From the NCBI GenBank assembly GCA_030524525.1, contig JAUNGI010000026.1, forward strand, positions 3,395 to 35,877: 32,483 bases of DNA, in the 5' to 3' direction. The translations under genes were made by a program, and so were the position numbers. Numbering within the stretch: the stretch's first letter is position 1; every line of letters starts with the position of its first letter. Under the pieces are notes generated by a model, which had not been told where the DNA came from, searched no databases, and saw only the letters and a list, made by a program, of their open reading frames with translations. This document shows, piece by piece, positions 2,167-9,104 of the stretch. Source of the stretch: Lachnospiraceae bacterium (GTDB lineage: Bacteria > Bacillota > Clostridia > Lachnospirales > Lachnospiraceae).

Positions 2167-2202
2167 GAGAAGATCTGCAAATTTCTTTGGGATTTGTAAC
2201 AG

Positions 2203-2240
2203 CCGTTTCGGAGGGCGTGCCTTTCGGAACGGTTTTTTAT
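2203..2240 (+). terminator. Intrinsic terminator after thiC
   Basis: The arms CCGTTTCGGAGGGC and GCCTTTCGGAACGG fold into a near-continuous hairpin (a few G-U pairs, one G-T-type mismatch region), followed at once by six T residues. It ends the thiDC transcript. Confidence 0.85.
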
Positions 2241-2356: not shown

Positions 2357-2432
2357 TTTACTTTGATGAACATCCCTGAAAACGGATTTGCTTCCGCTTT
2401 GACTTGTTACTTGACAATTAACATGAAAAAAC

Positions 2433-2531
2433 TTGCTGAACGAGAAATCACCGTTGGAATATTACGAGGATCTATTGCAAAGGGAGATGGCAGGTGATAT
2501 ACTGAAAGATACCAAAAAAGAAAGGAGTTGA
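2433..2531 (+). other. Possible 32-codon ORF or gene remnant
   Basis: A TTG-initiated frame of 32 codons runs into the ribosome-binding site of the peptidase gene. It is charged and helix-prone (it contains LEYYEDLLQREMAGDILKD) and looks more like genuine protein than random sequence. There is no Shine-Dalgarno sequence before it and an in-frame stop lies three codons upstream, so it may be the tail of a deleted gene. The peptidase promoter lies inside it. I do not recognise the family. Confidence 0.25.
2475..2503 (+). promoter_or_regulatory. Candidate sigma-A promoter for the peptidase gene
   Basis: TTGCAA (2475-2480), a 17-base spacer and TATACT (2498-2503) give a plausible promoter about 30 bases upstream of the GTG start, with AAAGGAG as ribosome-binding site at 2521-2527. 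Confidence 0.5.
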
Positions 2532-2537
2532 TGCATT

Positions 2538-3893
2538 GTGAAAAAAATTGTTAGCCTAGTACTCGCCTGTCTGCTGACGGTGACTCTTTTTCCGCATATG
2601 GCGCAGGCAAGCAGCGTACTCAGCACGGATTCGTATTATATTAACGAAAAATCCAGCGGGAAATATCTGTGGGTTTCCGGAAGCATTGCCGGAGCAAAAC
2701 AGGGGAAAATCAGCACGCTGGGAACGTCCATACAATGGAAGGTGACGAATAAGGACAGCACATGGTCCACGGTTACCCGCATCTCCGACAGCACAAAATA
2801 TCTTTGCAATGAAAGCGGTTCTACTGTCAACATAAAAACCGTCTCCGGGACGACTCCGGATTCCTGCTTATGGTCTTTTACGATGGAGTCGGGCGGAATC
2901 CGGATCAAGAACAAGGCAACAGGGAATTATCTTTATATTTCTGGCGGAAGTGTGGCGGCGGTTTCGCTGTCGGCGAATCCATCTTATTGGAGAACGATCC
3001 CTACCAGCAAATATGGGACGACAAGTGCATATACCTATCGGGAGCTTCTCGGCCTTTCGATGGGCAATCCTGTTGTGAGGCTTGGCGAAACCAAGACAAT
3101 TTCTTATAACAAGCTGCCTGTGAGCACGAATGTTTTGTGGGCAGGGGTCAATGACTTTACTTATAGCATTACAGAAAATTCCGGAAACTGTTCTGTACCT
3201 TCTGCGGGAAAGCTAAAGGGACGGAACCTTGGAACCGCGACACTGAAAATGGTACATAAACCTACCGGACTTACGATTACAAAAACGGTAACCGTTATGG
3301 TCGATGCTGCGCTGTTTGGCGTAACCTCGACTGGTCATGATCATAGCAGTGGGCTGCAAAACGTAAGCAACACTTTGACCAATGCTGGGTATGATCATAT
3401 TTGGCTGAAAACTTCCGGAACAATTTCGATGGCGGATATAAAAAAGGGGCTGCAGTATTCCAGCCTGTTTATCAGCCGCAGCCATGGCGGCAGCTCTTCT
3501 GACGGTTCCTATATCGTCATAGGAAACGCAAAATCAGAGACAAGGTTTTACGGCAGCGAATTGTATGACTGGTCAACAGGGGAAGCTTGGATAGATCTTT
3601 CTCGATGTAAAGTTTGTTTGTTCGTTGGCTGTGAGACGGGGAAAGTGGGAACTCCCAATCATAATTTGCCGGAATCGGCGGTAGGAGCCGGTGCGAAGGC
3701 TGCGGTAGGATTCCAGAAATCTATAACCTGTTCCGAGGCAAATACATTTACCAAAGAGGTTGTGAAAAATCTTGCGGCGGGTCAGGGAATTGCTACCGCA
3801 TTAAGAAATGCAGTCAATGTTGTAGATAAATATGGCGCTTACGGTTTGGATTCCTACAAGGTATCTGGGAATCAAAGTCAGACTTTGAATTGA
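2538..3893 (+). CDS. Secreted caspase-like (clan CD) cysteine peptidase with ricin-type domain
   Basis: This 451-residue protein begins with a Sec signal peptide (KK, a hydrophobic run, then a MAQA cleavage site). Residues about 30-155 form three similar segments (YYINEKSSGKYLWVSG, STKYLCNESG, IRIKNKATGNYLYISG) typical of ricin-type beta-trefoil binding modules. Residues about 175-255 resemble a bacterial Ig-like spacer. The C-terminal domain looks like a caspase-haemoglobinase fold: a beta strand (ALFGVTSTGHD), then SLFISRSHGG with His316, then a hydrophobic strand VCLFVGCETG with Cys365. The His-Cys spacing of 49 residues matches clan CD. GTG is the start; AAAGGAG lies nine bases upstream. 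The protein probably acts outside the membrane. The following lipoprotein gene overlaps its stop through its ribosome-binding site. Fold and dyad are inferred from motifs; the cleavage specificity is not known. Confidence 0.72.
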   Translation: MKKIVSLVLACLLTVTLFPHMAQASSVLSTDSYYINEKSSGKYLWVSGSIAGAKQGKISTLGTSIQWKVTNKDSTWSTVTRISDSTKYLCNESGSTVNIKTVSGTTPDSCLWSFTMESGGIRIKNKATGNYLYISGGSVAAVSLSANPSYWRTIPTSKYGTTSAYTYRELLGLSMGNPVVRLGETKTISYNKLPVSTNVLWAGVNDFTYSITENSGNCSVPSAGKLKGRNLGTATLKMVHKPTGLTITKTVTVMVDAALFGVTSTGHDHSSGLQNVSNTLTNAGYDHIWLKTSGTISMADIKKGLQYSSLFISRSHGGSSSDGSYIVIGNAKSETRFYGSELYDWSTGEAWIDLSRCKVCLFVGCETGKVGTPNHNLPESAVGAGAKAAVGFQKSITCSEANTFTKEVVKNLAAGQGIATALRNAVNVVDKYGAYGLDSYKVSGNQSQTLN

Positions 3894-3904
3894 GGAGGCA
3901 TATT

Positions 3905-4837
3905 ATGAAAAAGCAATTTTACGTTTTATTGTTGGGACTTCTGATCGCATTGTGCGGCTGCCAGAAAAACGAGGAAAAGGAAGCAAGTTATGAAACGTTT
4001 GCGGTAGCGGCAGACGGTACCAAGCAGCTCTTTTCCGGGGATGCCAAGTTCAAAGAAGAAAAATATGAGGAGGCATACCAAAACAAGAATGCTGCAAAGG
4101 AAAAACGGGGAAGTTTTTTAGACGTATCGGATGAGCTTGTTTATGAAGAGACAGAGAAGAATCATTTCACGGGATGCCCGATTGATCTCTACAAAGGAAA
4201 AACAGATTCGCAGGTAAAGTATTGGTATTTTTCTGACACGAGTACCTTGTATCAGTATTTTAACGAAAGGGGGCTGGATATCGGAATCGCGGCAGACGCA
4301 GCGGAGGATGAAATCTACTCCGCGCTGGAAGGGCTTCTTGTGGAGAAGCTGCTTCCAGAGGGGGTCGAGATAAATCAGCTGCGGCGCACGGTGCGTACGC
4401 GTATGTTTACCAATACGGTGGAGGATGGAATTCCGACCCTGACTGCGGACAGTGTGGACGGCTATATATTGCCGGGAGAAAATCAGGAAACAGAATATGT
4501 AATTATGTATGCTTACCCGATTGGCGGCGTAGATTCATATGAAATGTATGTATTTACTCTGACAGAGGCGCATGCCTTAATTTTGTACAGTGCGCCCAGA
4601 CCGGAGATCTTTAGCCTTTCGGACGACGCCATTGATAAGAAAAAAATGCAGGAGAGCGTAGACAATTTCTGCAAAGAGGGCTTTTCGAAAGAAACCGGGA
4701 AAAAGCAGACGAACGGACAATTTTGGTATTGGAATTCCGAAGGAAAGCTGGAGATATTGACAATCATGGATGTGGAATATAACCGTGGGGATCATACCGG
4801 CGGAGAGATTGTTGAACTTATCACGACATTGGAGTAG
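3905..4837 (+). CDS. Lipoprotein of unknown family, coupled to the peptidase
   Basis: This 310-residue protein has a lipoprotein signal, MKKQFYVLLLGLLIALCGC, with the Cys at position 19 as the likely lipidated residue. The ATG at 3905 is chosen because the GGAGG at 3894-3898 sits over the peptidase stop codon, which implies translational coupling. The mature part is acidic and mixed alpha/beta (for example NEEKEASYETFAVAADG near the start and YVIMYAYPIGGVDSYEMYVF later), with no motif I can assign. Its role is unknown. Its tight linkage suggests it helps to anchor, activate or restrain the secreted peptidase. The gene ends one base before a 13-G run, so the very end of the frame and what follows it should be treated with care. 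Confidence 0.75.
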   Translation: MKKQFYVLLLGLLIALCGCQKNEEKEASYETFAVAADGTKQLFSGDAKFKEEKYEEAYQNKNAAKEKRGSFLDVSDELVYEETEKNHFTGCPIDLYKGKTDSQVKYWYFSDTSTLYQYFNERGLDIGIAADAAEDEIYSALEGLLVEKLLPEGVEINQLRRTVRTRMFTNTVEDGIPTLTADSVDGYILPGENQETEYVIMYAYPIGGVDSYEMYVFTLTEAHALILYSAPRPEIFSLSDDAIDKKKMQESVDNFCKEGFSKETGKKQTNGQFWYWNSEGKLEILTIMDVEYNRGDHTGGEIVELITTLE

Positions 4838-4838
4838 C

Positions 4839-4851
4839 GGGGGGGGGGGGG
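4839..4851. repeat. 13-base poly-G tract
   Basis: Thirteen consecutive G residues follow the lipoprotein stop codon (TAG at 4835-4837) after a single C. They are in frame with the orphan coding end that follows. Such tracts are either slipped-strand (phase-variable) sites or an artefact of two-colour sequencing chemistry that let an assembler join unrelated sequence. Confidence 0.95.
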
Positions 4852-4926
4852 AAATTTCGCCTTACCTTTGTTCCCGGTGATGCGGCAAAAGTGCAGGCAA
4901 GCGTAGAAGGTTTTACAAAAAAATAA
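4852..4926 (+). pseudogene. Orphan 3' end of a coding sequence
   Basis: From the poly-G run, one frame reads KFRLTFVPGDAAKVQASVEG, then FTKK and a TAA stop (4924-4926). The peptide has a protein-like composition but no upstream gene: the G run would encode only glycines, and the lipoprotein ends before it. The last 11 codons fall in the 55-base repeat also found at the window start. It is a tail cut from another gene, by recombination or by misassembly. Confidence 0.55.
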
Positions 4927-4944
4927 ATCAATTACTTTCATAAG
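4890..4944. repeat. 55-bp exact repeat, copy B
   Basis: Identical to 1-55. It includes the last 11 codons and stop of the orphan coding end plus 18 downstream bases. Beyond it the sequence leads into the serpin gene, whereas copy A leads into thiD. Confidence 0.9.
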
Positions 4945-4998
4945 ACAACTGAAGATGGAGAAAGAACAATAAATTGCAAAGAACAAGGAGGGGCGGCT

Positions 4999-6246
4999 AT
5001 GAAAATAAAAAACAAGAAAAGAAGACTCGTTGTACTTCCTTTAATCCTTCTCTTATGCCTGTTTCTGACCGGCTGTCAGGGGATCAAGGCGACCGATCTG
5101 ACAAAGGACGTCAAAGCTTCTTCGGACGTTACCGGAAAGGAGACTACCGAGGAGTTTGCAAAAGCGCAGATGGACTTTGCGGTGCGGCTTCTGCAAAACG
5201 GAGGGTCAGAGGAGCAAAATACGCTGCTTTCGCCCGTGTCCGCCATGCTGGCGCTTTCCATGGTCGCTAACGGCGCGCAGGGCGTGACGCTTGCGGAAAT
5301 GGAGGCGGTGCTTGGGATGCCCGTCGGGGAACTGAACGAGTTTCTGTACTATTATGTGAACCATTTGCCGGACGGAAGGAAATATCGGGTGAATTTGGGG
5401 AATTCCATCTGGATAAATACCGGACGAGGGCTTACCATCAAGCAGGATTTTCTTCAGACAAATGCGGATTATTACGGCGCGCAGATTTACGAAACGAATT
5501 TTTCGGATGCTCAGGCGCTGGAGGACGTGAACCGGTGGCTCAGCAAACAGACCGATAAAATGCTGGAAGACGCTGTGGAAAAACTGAATACCGATGCGGT
5601 TATGATGCTGCTGAATGCGCTGAGCTTTGAGGCGGAATGGGAAAATGTCTACGCAAAGTCCGATGTGCATGAGGGCGAATTTACCTCTCTCAAGGGAGAA
5701 ATCCAGAAGGCGACGTTTCTTTCCGGCGAAGAAGGCTGTTATTTTTCCATGGAAAACGGGAGGGGCTTTGCCAAAGATTATAAAAAATCCGGTTATCAGT
5801 TTATTGCTCTGATTCCCGAAGAAGGCGTAAGTTTATCCGATTTCCTTGCCGGATTGACCGGAGAGCAGCTCTTTGAAACACTGAAAAACGGACAGAAGGC
5901 GAGCGTGGAGGTTTCGCTTCCCAAGTTCTCCTGCGAGTACGAAGCCGACCTAAAGGAAGCGCTGCAAAAGATGGGAATGGTAGTGGCGTTTGAAGGCGGA
6001 GCGGCTGATTTTAACTGCTTGGGCCGGTTGGTGGACGGACGGCTGCATATCGAAAATATGGTGCAGATGACCACGCTTACGGTGGATGAGAAGGGAACGC
6101 GCGGGGGTGCGGCGTCCAAGATCGAAATGGAGATGGATTCGGCGTCGATGTACCGCGTATCTTTGAATCGTCCGTTTCTGTATATGGTCGTAGATACGGA
6201 AAATCATATTCCGCTGTTTATCGGAACTGTGGTGGATCTGAAATAA
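4999..6246 (+). CDS. Lipoprotein serpin (serine/cysteine peptidase inhibitor)
   Basis: Serpins trap target peptidases by inserting a cleaved reactive loop into a beta sheet. This 415-residue protein has a lipobox (LFLTGC, Cys about position 26), so it should be tethered outside the cell membrane. Family landmarks are LLSPVSAMLALSMVANGAQG, the NSIWIN strand, MMLLNALSFEAEWENVY, GYQFIALIPEEG, SLPKF and the C-terminal RPFLYMVVDTENHIPLFIGTVVD. The hinge is E364-K-G-T-R-G-G-A-A-S373: small residues at P12-P9 support an inhibitory serpin, and Arg at P13 is unusual. Counting 17 from Glu364 places P1 at Asp380 and P1' at Ser381. Asp at P1 is rare and is the choice of the caspase inhibitor CrmA. AAGGAGG precedes the ATG. 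A terminator follows. The peptidase at 2538 is the obvious candidate partner, if the poly-G junction between them is real. Confidence 0.92.
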   Translation: MKIKNKKRRLVVLPLILLLCLFLTGCQGIKATDLTKDVKASSDVTGKETTEEFAKAQMDFAVRLLQNGGSEEQNTLLSPVSAMLALSMVANGAQGVTLAEMEAVLGMPVGELNEFLYYYVNHLPDGRKYRVNLGNSIWINTGRGLTIKQDFLQTNADYYGAQIYETNFSDAQALEDVNRWLSKQTDKMLEDAVEKLNTDAVMMLLNALSFEAEWENVYAKSDVHEGEFTSLKGEIQKATFLSGEEGCYFSMENGRGFAKDYKKSGYQFIALIPEEGVSLSDFLAGLTGEQLFETLKNGQKASVEVSLPKFSCEYEADLKEALQKMGMVVAFEGGAADFNCLGRLVDGRLHIENMVQMTTLTVDEKGTRGGAASKIEMEMDSASMYRVSLNRPFLYMVVDTENHIPLFIGTVVDLK

Positions 6247-6265
6247 TGCAAGAAAACTTATGACG

Positions 6266-6313
6266 AAAACGGAAGGAACTTGTCTTAAAAAAGACGAATT
6301 CCTTCCGTTTTTT
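6266..6313 (+). terminator. Intrinsic terminator after the serpin gene
   Basis: AAAACGGAAGGAA (from 6266) pairs with TTCCTTCCGTTTT, with a second short stem GTCTT/AAGAC inside the loop, and the 3' arm runs into T residues. It separates the serpin from the next operon. Confidence 0.85.
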
Positions 6314-6438
6314 GATTGGCTCTATAAAGAGACGCGTATATTATGTGAATTTTTACTAAAGATCAGGATAAAAAGTGCGTAAAAACATCAAAGAAAGGTA
6401 CAAAATTAACAAAAACGAATTTGAAAGAGAATAAAAAG

Positions 6439-6468
6439 TTGACATGTATTTTGGCGTAATAGTATAAT
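6439..6468 (+). promoter_or_regulatory. Strong sigma-A promoter for the 6536-11389 operon
   Basis: Perfect TTGACA (6439-6444) and TATAAT (6463-6468) boxes, 18 bases apart. The start of transcription should be near 6475, leaving a leader of about 60 bases before ATG 6536. Confidence 0.85.
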
Positions 6469-6535
6469 GCCTATGTAACGGTCAGAAGAAGTTGCAAGAC
6501 GCTGCTTATGACTGAGAAAAAAATGGAGGTAATTT

Positions 6536-7072
6536 ATGAAATTACATGCAATGAAAAAGGGAATTGCGCTGATGCTGATCACGGTATTGGTGTTTTCCAC
6601 GTCGGTATCGAGCGCCAGCGCGGACACAAAGTACAAGGTTACCCGCGTTGACAAGGAGTCGAAAACGGAATTTGGGACAGTAGGGACGCTGACGGATTCG
6701 ACCACGCTGAACATTACGATGAAAAGCTGGTGGTACTCGAAGTCCAAGGTGAAGACCAGCGGCGTATCAAAGCTTGAGTTTGACAAAGGGAAAACAAGTT
6801 ATACCTGTGAGGTGCAGTACCACAAAATCATTTTAACCATGTCCGGCATCGCCTTTTCCGCAACGATTTCCAGCAGTCCGTCGGTATCTGCTAAAACGAA
6901 GGGCAACAAGGTGACCTATACCTGTACGGACGCCTACTGGAGCTACGTCTTAAATACATCGGCAAACTGCTGGACCGGAAGCTATACACAGGAGTCTCAG
7001 GTTGAGTATAAGATTAAGGCGGGTACCGCTTACAAGGGAACCGTAACTCTATCAACGGAAATTGAATGGTAG
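6536..7072 (+). CDS. Small secreted protein of unknown family, first gene of export operon
   Basis: This 178-residue protein has a clear signal peptide (MKLHAMKKGIALMLITVLVF, then STSVSSASA), giving a mature chain of about 150 residues. The mature part is rich in Thr, Ser, Lys and aromatic residues, has alternating beta-strand patterns, a KSWWYSKSKVKTSG motif and three Cys, and ends in EIEW. I do not recognise the family. GGAGG lies eight bases before ATG 6536 and a near-consensus promoter precedes it. Five bases after its stop comes the first of two paralogous membrane proteins, then a MacB-type transporter, so it is probably the abundant product of a dedicated operon. A bacteriocin, toxin or envelope protein role is possible but unproven. 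Confidence 0.8.
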   Translation: MKLHAMKKGIALMLITVLVFSTSVSSASADTKYKVTRVDKESKTEFGTVGTLTDSTTLNITMKSWWYSKSKVKTSGVSKLEFDKGKTSYTCEVQYHKIILTMSGIAFSATISSSPSVSAKTKGNKVTYTCTDAYWSYVLNTSANCWTGSYTQESQVEYKIKAGTAYKGTVTLSTEIEW

Positions 7073-7077
7073 GCGGA

Positions 7078-8088
7078 TTGAAAATGGCAAAAAAGAAGCT
7101 TCTTTGGAAAATACCGCTGTTCGTTATTATCGGTGCCGTTGTGGTTCATCTTGTGATATGGTTGTATGTTCATTGGATGGCGAATCGACCTACGGTATCG
7201 TCGGTGCTGCCGGGTCATACGGACTACATGCAGATGGCGTACGGCTATGTGCACTGCATGGAGCTGGCGGAAAAGTCCGGCATTGCCATCGATCCCGCCG
7301 TCCGGGAGGAGGTGCGGGACTTTGTAGTAGCTTTAAGAGAATGCTATGAAGAAGGGAGATATGATGGGGTTTCCTGCTCCGAAATAATAAAAGTGGGCTA
7401 CCTCTATTCCTATTTTGATCTGGACTGCACGGGGCTTCAGAAGGCGCTGGATGAATTCTACATAAAAAAAGAGCGGCTGTTTGCCGAGGACAGCGCGGAC
7501 GATCCGTCGCAGATGGAAGCTGACGTCAGCGGCAGCGCGGATTTTCTGAAGATTCTGTTCGACACCGGCTCGGAGCTTTTGGAGGATTACAAGGTCAGAC
7601 AGGGTTTGGAGACGTGGTTCAACGAAAATATTGCGGAGGAGATAGGTAAGAAGGACGCGAAATTGGGAATGTTCCATGATATTTTGTACATCTTCTATAC
7701 AGACGGTGGTTCGGTCGAGACGCTTTCCTATTCCTACCTTCGGGAGGACGCGCTTTCCTTCCTGCAAGAGGTTGACCGGGAAATGGACTCCTATGAGACA
7801 AGCATCTGGAACGTAGGCATTTTGGATGACGCGGTATTTGAGGCGGACATTTTTGACTATGACAGGGACTTCCTGACCGCGTCGCGGCAGATGTACGAAA
7901 AGCTGGATTCGCGGGAGGCGTTTGGTTACGACGTGAACGAAGGCTTCGGGCTGCTTGTGATATCTTATTTCCTAAGAGAGCACTTTTCCGTTACCGGCAG
8001 CATATACAACGATTTCCTTGCGGAGAATTTGAACGGGATGCTCCACGAACATTTTGAACGCTACTGCAAGGGAAGGATAGGGACGTAG
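7078..8088 (+). CDS. Membrane-anchored paralogue A, unknown function
   Basis: This 336-residue protein has one N-terminal membrane segment (residues about 9-30, after KKKLLWK) followed by the invariant YVHWMANRPTVSSVLP and an acidic, helical, probably extracytoplasmic domain of about 295 residues. The start is taken as TTG 7078 rather than ATG 7066 or ATG 7084. The reason is that the next gene, which is about 87 percent identical, starts with ATG at exactly the equivalent codon (TTG-AAA-ATG-GCA here, ATG-AAA-AAC-TCA there), both after GTAGGCGGA. No known motif or catalytic residue set is visible. It lies between the secreted protein and paralogue B in one transcript. It could be an immunity, chaperone or transporter-accessory protein; this is inference from context. 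Confidence 0.82.
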   Translation: MKMAKKKLLWKIPLFVIIGAVVVHLVIWLYVHWMANRPTVSSVLPGHTDYMQMAYGYVHCMELAEKSGIAIDPAVREEVRDFVVALRECYEEGRYDGVSCSEIIKVGYLYSYFDLDCTGLQKALDEFYIKKERLFAEDSADDPSQMEADVSGSADFLKILFDTGSELLEDYKVRQGLETWFNENIAEEIGKKDAKLGMFHDILYIFYTDGGSVETLSYSYLREDALSFLQEVDREMDSYETSIWNVGILDDAVFEADIFDYDRDFLTASRQMYEKLDSREAFGYDVNEGFGLLVISYFLREHFSVTGSIYNDFLAENLNGMLHEHFERYCKGRIGT

Positions 8089-8093
8089 GCGGA

Positions 8094-9104
8094 ATGAAAA
8101 ACTCAAAAAAGAAGCTTCTTTGGAAAATACCGCTGTTCTTTATTATCGGCGCCGTTGCGGTCCATCTTGTGATATGGGTATATGTTCATTGGATGGCGAA
8201 TCGACCTACGGTATCGTCGGTGCTGCCGGAGCATACGGAATATATGCAGTTGGCGTACGGTTATGTGCACTGCATGGATCTGGCGGAAAAATCCGGCATT
8301 GCCATCGATCCCGCCGTCCGGGAGGAGGTGCGGGACTTTGTAGTAGCTTTAAGAGAATGCTACGAAGAAGGGAGATATGATGGGGTCTTTTGCTCTGAAC
8401 TAATTAAAGTGGGCTATCTCTACTCCTATTTTGATCTGGACTGCACGGGGCTTCAGGAGGCTCTGGATGAGTTCTACGTAAAGAAAGAGCGGCTGTTTGC
8501 CGAGGTCAGTGCAGACGATCCGTCGCAGATGGAAGCGGACGCCGGGGGCAGCGCAGATTTTCTGAGAATTCTGTTCGATACCGGCTCGGAGCTTTTGGAG
8601 GATTATGAAGTCAGACAGGGTTTGGAGGCATGGTTCAACGAAAACATTGTGGAGGAGACGAGCAAGCCAGACGGGGAACGGACTCCGTTTTTTGATATTT
8701 TGTATCTTTTTTACACAAGCGGCGGCTCGATCGAGACGCTTTCCTATTCCTACCTTCGGGAGGATGCGCTTCCCTTCCTACAAGAGGTTGACCGGGAAAT
8801 GGATTCCTATGAGGCATACATTTGGAACGTGGGCGCTTTGGACGACGCGGCGTTTGAAGGGGATGTTTTCGGCTACGACAGGGACTTTCTGACCGCGTCG
8901 CGGCAGATGTACGAAAAGCTGGATTCGAGGGAGGCGTTTGGTTACGACGTGAACGAAGACTTCGGGCTGCTTGTGATATCTTATTTTCTGAGAGTACACT
9001 TTTCCGTTACCGGCAGCATATACAACGATTTCCTTGCGGAGAATCTAAATGCAATGCTCCACGAGCATTTCGAGCGCTACTGTAAGGGAAGGATAGGGGC
9101 GTAG
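8094..9104 (+). CDS. Membrane-anchored paralogue B, unknown function
   Basis: Tandem duplicate of the preceding gene: also 336 residues, aligning without gaps at about 87 percent identity, with the same single N-terminal anchor. The differences are not evenly spread. Residues 189-200 differ at 9 of 12 positions, while long stretches (for example the 40 residues after SGIAIDPAVREEV, and EKLDSREAFGYDVNE) are nearly unchanged. It starts with ATG five bases after paralogue A. The transporter gene follows after 32 bases with a good ribosome-binding site. The duplication looks fairly recent but kept, with one patch diverging. Confidence 0.85.
   Translation: MKNSKKKLLWKIPLFFIIGAVAVHLVIWVYVHWMANRPTVSSVLPEHTEYMQLAYGYVHCMDLAEKSGIAIDPAVREEVRDFVVALRECYEEGRYDGVFCSELIKVGYLYSYFDLDCTGLQEALDEFYVKKERLFAEVSADDPSQMEADAGGSADFLRILFDTGSELLEDYEVRQGLEAWFNENIVEETSKPDGERTPFFDILYLFYTSGGSIETLSYSYLREDALPFLQEVDREMDSYEAYIWNVGALDDAAFEGDVFGYDRDFLTASRQMYEKLDSREAFGYDVNEDFGLLVISYFLRVHFSVTGSIYNDFLAENLNAMLHEHFERYCKGRIGA

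What the first reader, a model, noticed from the sequence alone, without database searches (positions are those of the whole stretch)
2538..6246. A secreted caspase-like peptidase next to a lipoprotein serpin with Asp at the predicted P1 position
Counting from the hinge glutamate (Glu364, P17) by ungapped alignment with alpha-1-antitrypsin, the serpin's P1-P1' is Asp380-Ser381, in the sequence EMEMD-SAS. The viral serpin CrmA, which inhibits caspases, has Asp at P1 in a similar context (VAD-CAS). The gene two places upstream encodes a secreted protein with the His-Gly (His316) and Cys (Cys365) pattern of clan CD peptidases. An enzyme and its cross-class inhibitor encoded side by side, both outside the membrane, would be a bacterial parallel of the caspase-CrmA pair. 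The loop is one residue longer than antitrypsin's beyond P1', so the register is an inference.
Basis: partly seen in the sequence, partly recalled or inferred. Interest (0 to 1): 0.88.

Follow-up and report, generated by a model that had tools for sequence, protein, structure and literature searches.

The report
Secreted peptidase, lipoprotein and serpin cassette
Three neighbouring genes of a Lachnospiraceae-type bacterium encode an exported peptidase of the CHAT type, a membrane-anchored protein that often accompanies such peptidases, and a serpin; the grouping looks real, but the proposed likeness to the caspase-CrmA pair does not hold up well.

Summary
Window 2538-3893 encodes a secreted clan CD protein (CHAT family; His316, Cys365), and 4999-6246 a lipoprotein serpin whose P1 by hinge count is Asp380. 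A lipoprotein gene (3905-4837) lies between them. The unit lies between two terminators; none was found between lipoprotein and serpin.

Of 48 related CHAT ORFs scored, 3 have a serpin within 2 kb (window, G017, G1050; 0.07-0.13 expected), but 21 have a homologue of the middle lipoprotein within 1 kb. That protein, with DUF4901/PepSY-like relatives, is the commoner partner and the likelier inhibitor. P1-Asp is not shared: G017's loop is degenerate and its CHAT lacks the His; G1050's loop has Lys-Ser at the centre. Asp is P1 in 4 of 87 serpin loops by the same count. The CHAT has an acidic residue (D268) at the helix-alpha1 S1 position where caspases have Arg; this predicts basic, not Asp, specificity, by sequence only.

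Side result: serpins that look like the outer part of ECF anti-sigma factors, one of them at the G1050 CHAT locus.

The parts
2201..2234 (+). intrinsic terminator-like hairpin after thiC, upstream edge of the unit
   Evidence: pattern scan; fold -22.1 kcal/mol for 2190-2245
2475..2503 (+). promoter-like site TTGCAA-17-TATACT with TG before the -10
   Evidence: consensus scan, (5 sites found, 7.9 expected in shuffles, so weak)
2538..3893 (+). secreted CHAT (clan CD) peptidase-like protein, 451 aa, with an N-terminal ricin-type lectin-like region
   Evidence: Pfam CHAT 34.9 bits, RicinB_lectin_2 29.7 bits; paralogue G000:C19, 151 of 442 aligned columns identical
3306..3890 (+). catalytic domain, residues 257-451; Asp268 codon 3339-3341, His316 codon 3483-3485, Cys365 codon 3630-3632
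   Evidence: alignments A1/A6 and column counts
3905..4837 (+). lipoprotein (310 aa from ATG 3905, Cys19), recurrent CHAT neighbour, DUF4901/PepSY-like through its relatives; the open frame from TTG 3890 overlaps the CHAT stop
   Evidence: blastp E 5e-16 to the lipoprotein two genes behind the C19 paralogue; profile family within 1 kb of 21 of 48 CHAT ORFs
4839..4851 (+). run of 13 G between lipoprotein and serpin genes
   Evidence: no other homopolymer of 9 or more in the window
4999..6246 (+). lipoprotein serpin (415 aa, lipobox Cys26)
   Evidence: Pfam Serpin 265.4 bits; tengpin E 5e-92
6088..6177 (+). reactive-centre loop, P17 Glu364 to the RPF motif; Asp380 (P1 by count) codon 6136-6138
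6265..6312 (+). intrinsic terminator after the serpin, followed by a T run
   Evidence: fold of 6255-6325: -27.3 kcal/mol, 21-bp stem; missed by the pattern scan

Best explanation
This is a three-gene surface-proteolysis cassette. The first gene makes an exported CHAT peptidase with a lectin-like front part. The second makes its recurrent membrane-anchored, DUF4901/PepSY-like partner, which most likely restrains or chaperones the peptidase at the producer's surface, as co-encoded Spi, staphostatin and Bfi proteins do or are proposed to do for other cysteine peptidases. The third makes a lipoprotein serpin, added in a minority of loci as a second protease-control layer. The serpin most likely traps proteases that reach the cell surface from outside, at a loop centred on Met379-Asp380-Ser381, rather than being the dedicated inhibitor of the CHAT enzyme. 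Shown: gene content, order, family memberships, the recurrence counts. Inferred: export and anchoring from sequence, co-transcription, inhibitory role of the partner, P1 register, and the target of the serpin.
For: Unit bounded by terminators, none found between lipoprotein and serpin. Partner homologues: a profile seeded with four lipoproteins and run over CHAT and serpin regions alike kept 14 of 3065 ORFs at E below 1e-4: 12 beside CHAT genes, one a second copy in a CHAT region, one at a serpin locus without CHAT (L160). Continued over the CHAT regions it gave 24 of 1937 ORFs, 21 within 1 kb of a CHAT ORF on the same strand; 17 of the 20 best-scoring CHAT ORFs have one. Some partners match DUF4901, one above the curated cut-off (28.3 against 27), three below it. 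In G203 the partner is intact next to a CHAT remnant, and G980 and G580 hold extra partner copies, as immunity-type genes do. Serpins without a CHAT are common: serpins in 73 of 200 family genomes and 136 of 341 class genomes, this CHAT family in 12 of 397 and 7 of 341. The acidic S1 residue D268 does not fit a P1-Asp loop.
Against: The serpin-CHAT closeness in three genomes is more than chance, which a serpin aimed only at outside proteases does not explain by itself. The window's own lipoprotein has no DUF4901 match at E up to 5, and 6 of 9 partner-type proteins and the G1050 partner have none; the link runs through four relatives. 27 of 48 CHAT ORFs have no partner by this profile, 24 of them among the 28 lower-scoring ones. 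No expression, binding or activity data exist. The S1 inference rests on a variable region in which 27 of 49 rows have a gap.
Confidence: 0.5

Rival explanations
1. One reading: the serpin is the cross-class inhibitor of the CHAT enzyme, cleaved after Asp380, a bacterial parallel of caspase and CrmA.
For: Same unit, both with export signals; P1 Asp by count, P1' Ser; Lys394 in the loop-5 region could favour an acidic P1 (inference); serpin-CHAT closeness for 3 of 48 CHAT ORFs against 0.07-0.13 expected.
Against: Acidic residue at the helix-alpha1 S1 position (15 of 22 rows with a letter); no caspase-family hit; Cys-2 is Val, not Gln; P1 Asp not kept in G017 or G1050; 0 of 56 serpin regions not chosen for a CHAT carry one; another protein is the commoner neighbour.
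Confidence: 0.08
2. The serpin does control the CHAT enzyme, but not through a caspase-like Asp match: it is cleaved at another loop bond, as miropin can be, or binds in another way.
For: Recurrence of the pair in three genomes, in two of them with the partner too; miropin is reported to inhibit serine and cysteine proteases, gingipain among them (PMC6718151, passages read).
Against: The pair is rare; the G017 CHAT lacks its His, so it has no classical activity to inhibit; no basic residue lies near the centre of the window serpin's loop.
Confidence: 0.17
3. Closeness of serpin and CHAT is hitch-hiking or chance in regions of acquired surface-protein genes.
For: Serpins are abundant (1-8 in 21 of 22 genus genomes); GC3 of CHAT and lipoprotein is 0.49-0.52 and of the serpin 0.60, against 0.79 in thiC; the own serpin falls outside the 49-row clade that holds most of the fetched genus serpins.
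Against: Expected 0.07-0.13, observed 3; same strand in all three, adjacent or one gene apart, in two families and three genera.
Confidence: 0.2
4. The CHAT protein is an antagonistic toxin against other bacteria and the DUF4901-like protein its immunity protein; the serpin protects the cell from counter-attack.
For: C-terminal position of the CHAT domain behind lectin, choline-binding or CBM96 modules in several relatives; orphan and multiple partner copies; caspase-like domains at the C-terminus of polymorphic toxins have been described (PMC3482391, passages read).
Against: No trafficking domain of the known toxin systems among the Pfam hits; no data on killing.
Confidence: 0.2

Closest known systems
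CHAT-domain peptidases (Pfam PF12770), e.g. Csx29 of the Craspase system and separase-like enzymes
   Same: CHAT profile match, His-Gly and Cys in the usual order
   Different: Exported single enzyme with a lectin-like module (CBM96 or choline-binding in relatives), no TPR hit; partner is an anchored DUF4901-like protein. Several distant members fall below the Pfam cut-off, G1050's with 13.7 bits
SpeB-Spi, staphopain-staphostatin and Bacteroides Bfp-Bfi pairs (PMC2873492, passages read)
   Same: Cysteine peptidase gene with a protective, in part lipoprotein, partner gene next door
   Different: Other peptidase clan (C10/C47 against clan CD); no homology of the partners was looked for beyond Pfam; inhibition is not shown here
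Tengpin and other prokaryotic serpins; miropin and the KLIKK proteases of Tannerella (PMC4404884, passages read)
   Same: Serpin profile and hinge, nearest PDB relative tengpin; in Tannerella, secreted proteases preceded by lipoprotein genes, and a serpin in the same organism
   Different: Acidic residue at P1 by count, and a serpin inside the peptidase's own gene cluster
Caspase-CrmA pair (recalled, apart from the S1 rules read)
   Same: Asp at P1 by hinge count; a clan CD enzyme and a serpin
   Different: Enzyme is CHAT, not caspase; S1 residue acidic; P1 not conserved in the other pairs; no evidence of inhibition
YcdB/YcdC repeat (DUF4901) and PepSY proteins
   Same: Four relatives of the middle gene match DUF4901, one above the cut-off; one of 4 members matches PepSY at E 0.0086
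   Different: The window protein itself has no match; recurrent position beside CHAT genes

Membership tests
CHAT peptidase (PF12770) | profile score above the curated cut-off | tested here: met
   34.9 bits against 24
CHAT peptidase (PF12770) | His/Cys dyad | tested here: met
   His316, Cys365; kept in 41 of 43 and 44 of 46 rows with a letter
CHAT peptidase (PF12770) | clan CD fold | not testable with these tools
   structure prediction not available
Caspase (C14A) | match to the Peptidase_C14 profile | tested here: not met
   no such hit at E up to 1
Caspase (C14A) | basic S1 pocket: Arg at helix alpha1, Gln at Cys-2, Arg on loop 5 | tested here: inconclusive
   by alignment Asp268, Val363, Lys394; points against, but there is no structure
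Serpin (I4), inhibitory | serpin profile | tested here: met
   265.4 bits against 27
Serpin (I4), inhibitory | hinge P17-P9 ExGTEAAAA-like (as in PMC8233489) with small residues | tested here: met
   EKGTRGGAA; Arg at P13, Gly at P12 and P11
Serpin (I4), inhibitory | covalent complex with a protease | not testable with these tools
   needs purified proteins
CrmA-like caspase-inhibiting serpin | P1 Asp | tested here: inconclusive
   Asp380 by hinge count; loop one residue longer than canonical beyond P1
CrmA-like caspase-inhibiting serpin | cognate enzyme prefers Asp at P1 | tested here: inconclusive
   acidic S1 residue predicts a basic P1, sequence only
DUF4901 (PF16244) | profile score above the curated cut-off | tested here: not met
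   window protein no hit at E up to 5; relatives: L199 28.3 against 27, three others 20.0-25.0
Co-encoded peptidase inhibitor (Spi/staphostatin type, as a way of working) | recurrent adjacency to the peptidase gene | tested here: met
   within 1 kb, same strand, for 21 of 48 CHAT ORFs
Co-encoded peptidase inhibitor (Spi/staphostatin type, as a way of working) | inhibits the neighbouring peptidase | not testable with these tools
   needs an assay

The most novel reading that the evidence does not exclude
CHAT peptidase, DUF4901-like partner and serpin form a modular system in which the serpin is not only a trap but a protease sensor. In G1050 the serpin is the outer part of a membrane protein encoded directly behind an ECF sigma gene, where an anti-sigma factor is expected, and the CHAT and partner genes follow. 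Attack of a protease on the metastable serpin would then switch on the sigma factor and with it the peptidase cassette; the window would be a version that kept the three outer parts without the sigma gene.
Probability: 0.2. Interest if true: 0.88.

Novelty: new variant of a known kind. Interest (0 to 1): 0.58.

Why it matters
[quoted passage not shown] A locus type in which a serpin recurs with an exported clan CD peptidase and its partner gives testable enzyme-inhibitor assignments, and points to exported CHAT peptidases with DUF4901-like neighbours as a peptidase-partner pair. In one search (open-licence PMC only) no listed paper holds 'CHAT domain' together with 'PepSY' or 'serpin', and none of the 25 of 145 papers listed holds 'DUF4901'. 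The serpin/ECF-sigma arrangement, if confirmed, would be a new use of the serpin spring.

Tried and rejected
Assembly artefact: not tested on the window itself (no reads); made less likely because the same kinds of genes stand together in G017 and G1050. Chance: see rivals.

'The same trio in G017': the 272-aa DUF4901-type neighbour of the G017 serpin (Pfam 25.9 bits) was compared with the CHAT-partner profile A7: probability 1%; a CHAT-adjacent protein outside the alignment gave 93%, two controls 7% and 0.1%. So the third component in G017 is unproven.

Serpin phylogeny: own and G017 serpins fall in one 18-row clade (SH-aLRT 95) of a 119-row tree, not shown as sisters; G017's is a long branch of unsure place. 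Outside the 49-row clade of genus serpins also lie the own second serpin and those of G202 (one of two) and G203. No statement of common descent of the pair is made.

Mobile or named relatives: CHAT protein against plasmids and the catalytic domain against phages, no match; viral contigs, no relative; genome contigs, one locus, L123, Lachnospiraceae bacterium SUG1384, apparently the same contig as G115:C53 (same length).

Solved structures: profile A6 gave only weak CHAT hits (8tl0 E 0.028, 8rot E 0.98), not covering the S1 helix; profile A7 gave only a signal-peptide match.

Literature: searches. Passages or one section were read of PMC6718151, PMC8233489, PMC4357240, PMC4626109, PMC10028731, PMC3482391, PMC4404884, PMC2873492 and PMC10059941; the rest were seen as listings. 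PMC10059941 holds 'serpin', 'anti-sigma factor' and 'ECF sigma', but the passages read do not link them.
Full report
Setting. The window is G000 contig 56, 3395-35877, of a genome of 2.65 Mb in 62 contigs. A contig of the same family, G115:C53, has the same length as JAQXOR010000053.1, a Lachnospiraceae MAG, so the organism is probably of that family. Upstream lies thiC, and before it a gene that looks like thiD by eye.

What is there. ORF 2538-3893 encodes a protein with a Sec-type N-terminus, a ricin-type lectin-like region and a C-terminal CHAT domain. ORF 3905-4837 encodes a lipoprotein without a database name. ORF 4999-6246 encodes a lipoprotein serpin. A hairpin terminator follows thiC and another follows the serpin; a scan shows none on this strand between the lipoprotein and serpin genes. 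I take the three genes as one likely transcription unit (inference); the 161-base gap before the serpin, with a run of 13 G, could hold a promoter of its own.

His316, Cys365, Glu364 and Asp380-Ser381 are as stated. In 87 distinct loops with Gly at P15 and at least 28 residues, taken from the loci then in hand (two non-canonical hinges and fragments dropped), P1 by the same count is Ala 16, Thr 9, Lys 9, Glu 8, Cys 7, Gly 6, Tyr 6, Ser 5, Asp 4, Asn 4, Leu 4 and others. Loop lengths run from 29 to 36. Several of the 29-residue ones read K or R before S-x-P-P, which supports the register for that length; the window's is 30. The other three Asp loops (G039, G106, G207) have no CHAT gene in the fetched surroundings, which for G207 are only 1.5 kb each side.

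The peptidase family. The query CHAT has two relatives of the catalytic domain in its own genome, at C19 and C25, and a third protein sharing only the front part, at C42. Profile searches found the family in 5 of 22 genus genomes, 18 of 392 order genomes, 12 of 397 family genomes and 7 of 341 class genomes; the thresholds differ between these calls. Flanks were fetched for the hits and most; G266, G459 and the second G428 locus were left with short flanks and out of the count. 48 CHAT ORFs with E below 1e-4 were scored. The more distant ones are not all above the Pfam CHAT cut-off; G1050's has 13.7 bits against 24.

The usual neighbour. The lipoprotein behind the window CHAT is homologous to the one two genes behind the C19 paralogue (blastp E 5e-16), and aligns with those behind the CHATs of G012 and G115 (18-20% identity). 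A profile seeded with these four and iterated over CHAT and serpin regions alike kept 14 of 3065 ORFs at E below 1e-4: 12 beside CHAT genes, a second copy in a CHAT region (L144), and one at a serpin locus without CHAT (L160). Two more came between 1e-4 and 1e-3, one beside a CHAT (L145) and one at a serpin locus (L133). Continued over the CHAT regions, now with the class loci, it gave 24 of 1937 ORFs, 21 within 1 kb of a CHAT ORF on the same strand (20 downstream, one upstream), and the other three in the same regions. The negative side: 27 of 48 CHAT ORFs have none; the 20 best-scoring CHATs have it in 17 cases, the other 28 in 4. In several of the rest another protein of 250-370 aa with a hydrophobic N-terminus follows, which I have not classified. 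DUF4901 was matched by 3 of 9 partner-type proteins (below the cut-off) and by one of two (above it). In G203 an intact partner follows a CHAT remnant; in G980 four or five partners follow two CHATs. This is the pattern of a peptidase with a cognate protective protein; that it inhibits is inference, with the precedent of Spi, staphostatins and the predicted Bfi inhibitors (PMC2873492, passages read).

The serpin as neighbour. A serpin lies within 2 kb of the CHAT for 3 of 48: the window, G017 and G1050. Expected by chance is 0.07 for the 23 loci with counted serpins, or 0.13 with two serpins in 3 Mb assumed for each of the other 25; P for three or more is 5e-5 to 4e-4. The window was the reason for looking; without it, two of 47 remain, for which I compute by hand P of about 0.008 from the larger expectation. 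The G1050 case came from a class-level search made after the first two were known: one locus against 0.029 expected in that part. From the serpin side the result is negative: of 57 serpin regions, only the G017 one, which was fetched for its CHAT, holds a CHAT; some of these regions are short.

The two other loci. G017 (L116): sigma factor, a short anti-sigma-like gene, a DUF4901-type gene, serpin, CHAT-like protein. The CHAT-like protein has Lys for the His and the serpin hinge lacks the usual small residues; both look unable to work in the classical way. G1050 (L195): ECF-size sigma factor, serpin overlapping it by 4 bases, CHAT with His and Cys, and a partner (E 5e-43), all on one strand. 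Its loop reads ENGTKASAATKNEVYKS-LIM: Ser at P1 by count, Lys just before it.

Specificity. In clan CD the start of helix alpha1, the residue two before Cys, and loop 5 set S1. Caspases have Arg at the first, gingipain-R and separases an acid (PMC4626109 and PMC4357240, passages read). The window CHAT has Asp268 there. In the wide alignment of 49 rows (one ORF gives two), 22 rows have a letter in that column: Asp 14, Glu 1, Asn 5, Gly 1, Tyr 1; 27 rows have a gap. Two before Cys is Val363. In loop 5 the window has Lys394, a very variable column. On balance I expect Arg/Lys at P1, with low confidence. If so, a loop centred on Met-Asp-Ser does not suit it.

Verdict. Observation confirmed; association of CHAT and serpin probably real but infrequent; caspase-CrmA parallel unlikely (0.08), some other control of the CHAT by the serpin possible (0.17). 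Most likely the serpin is a second, outward-facing guard in a cassette whose peptidase is handled by its own lipoprotein partner.

A side result of weight. Eight serpin ORFs in seven loci, picked by eye from the list, have a short N-terminal stretch, a membrane segment and then the serpin; six of them begin within -29 to +21 bases of a sigma gene on the same strand. A loose lipobox pattern also matches at the membrane segment in two of the eight. Of 72 serpin ORFs in 59 loci, 17 in 14 loci have such a sigma gene within 2.5 kb upstream; one of these sigma ORFs (L155, 586 codons) is too long for an ECF type. Position and layout are those of membrane anti-sigma factors; that the N-terminal stretch binds sigma is inference, and no Pfam anti-sigma domain was found in the four tested (L142, L178, L188, L195). 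Of the 610 papers only 20 were listed; the one with all of 'serpin', 'anti-sigma factor' and 'ECF sigma' does not link them in the passages read.

Noticed in passing
L142:4326-5783, L167:695-2104, L178:5966-7378, L184:8334-9800 and 6077-7579, L188:5544-7103, L165:7545-9161, L195:7834-9186: Serpins with a cytosol-type N-terminal stretch and a membrane segment; six of the eight start right behind a sigma gene, as anti-sigma factors do: candidate serpin-type protease sensors.
   Followed up: partly
L116:9470-11417 (G017): Serpin with a degenerate hinge next to a CHAT-like protein that has Lys for the catalytic His; both appear to have lost the classical function.
   Followed up: partly
L199:8866-19337 (G980): Two CHAT genes with four or five DUF4901-like partner genes, some without a CHAT of their own, like immunity-gene arrays.
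   Followed up: no
L124:7688-8824 (G203): CHAT remnant of about 75 codons followed by an intact partner lipoprotein gene.
   Followed up: no
L200:9297-10469 and L203:251-2275: CHAT-like proteins with other residues at the His and Cys columns (L200) or at the Cys column (L203), so likely inactive relatives, each with a partner gene (edge-cut in L203).
   Followed up: no
window 4839-4851: Run of 13 G in the gap before the serpin gene, the only homopolymer of 9 or more in the window; possible slippage site affecting serpin expression, or an assembly matter.
   Followed up: no
window 2400-9000: Lower GC (0.44-0.53) than the flanks (0.55-0.60, with a dip to 0.52 at 11.4-13.2 kb), and the serpin falls outside the clade of most fetched serpins of its genus: possibly an acquired stretch.
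   Followed up: partly
window 7066-8088 and 8094-9104: Two tandem genes for proteins of 336-340 aa with a hydrophobic N-terminus, 87% identical, with no Pfam match.
   Followed up: no
window 6439-6468: Perfect sigma-70-type promoter consensus (12 of 12, spacer 18) upstream of the 178-aa secreted-protein gene at 6536.
   Followed up: no
L039:1540-3042 (G000:C42): Protein that shares the front part of the CHAT protein but has another C-terminal part: front part reused with different ends.
   Followed up: no
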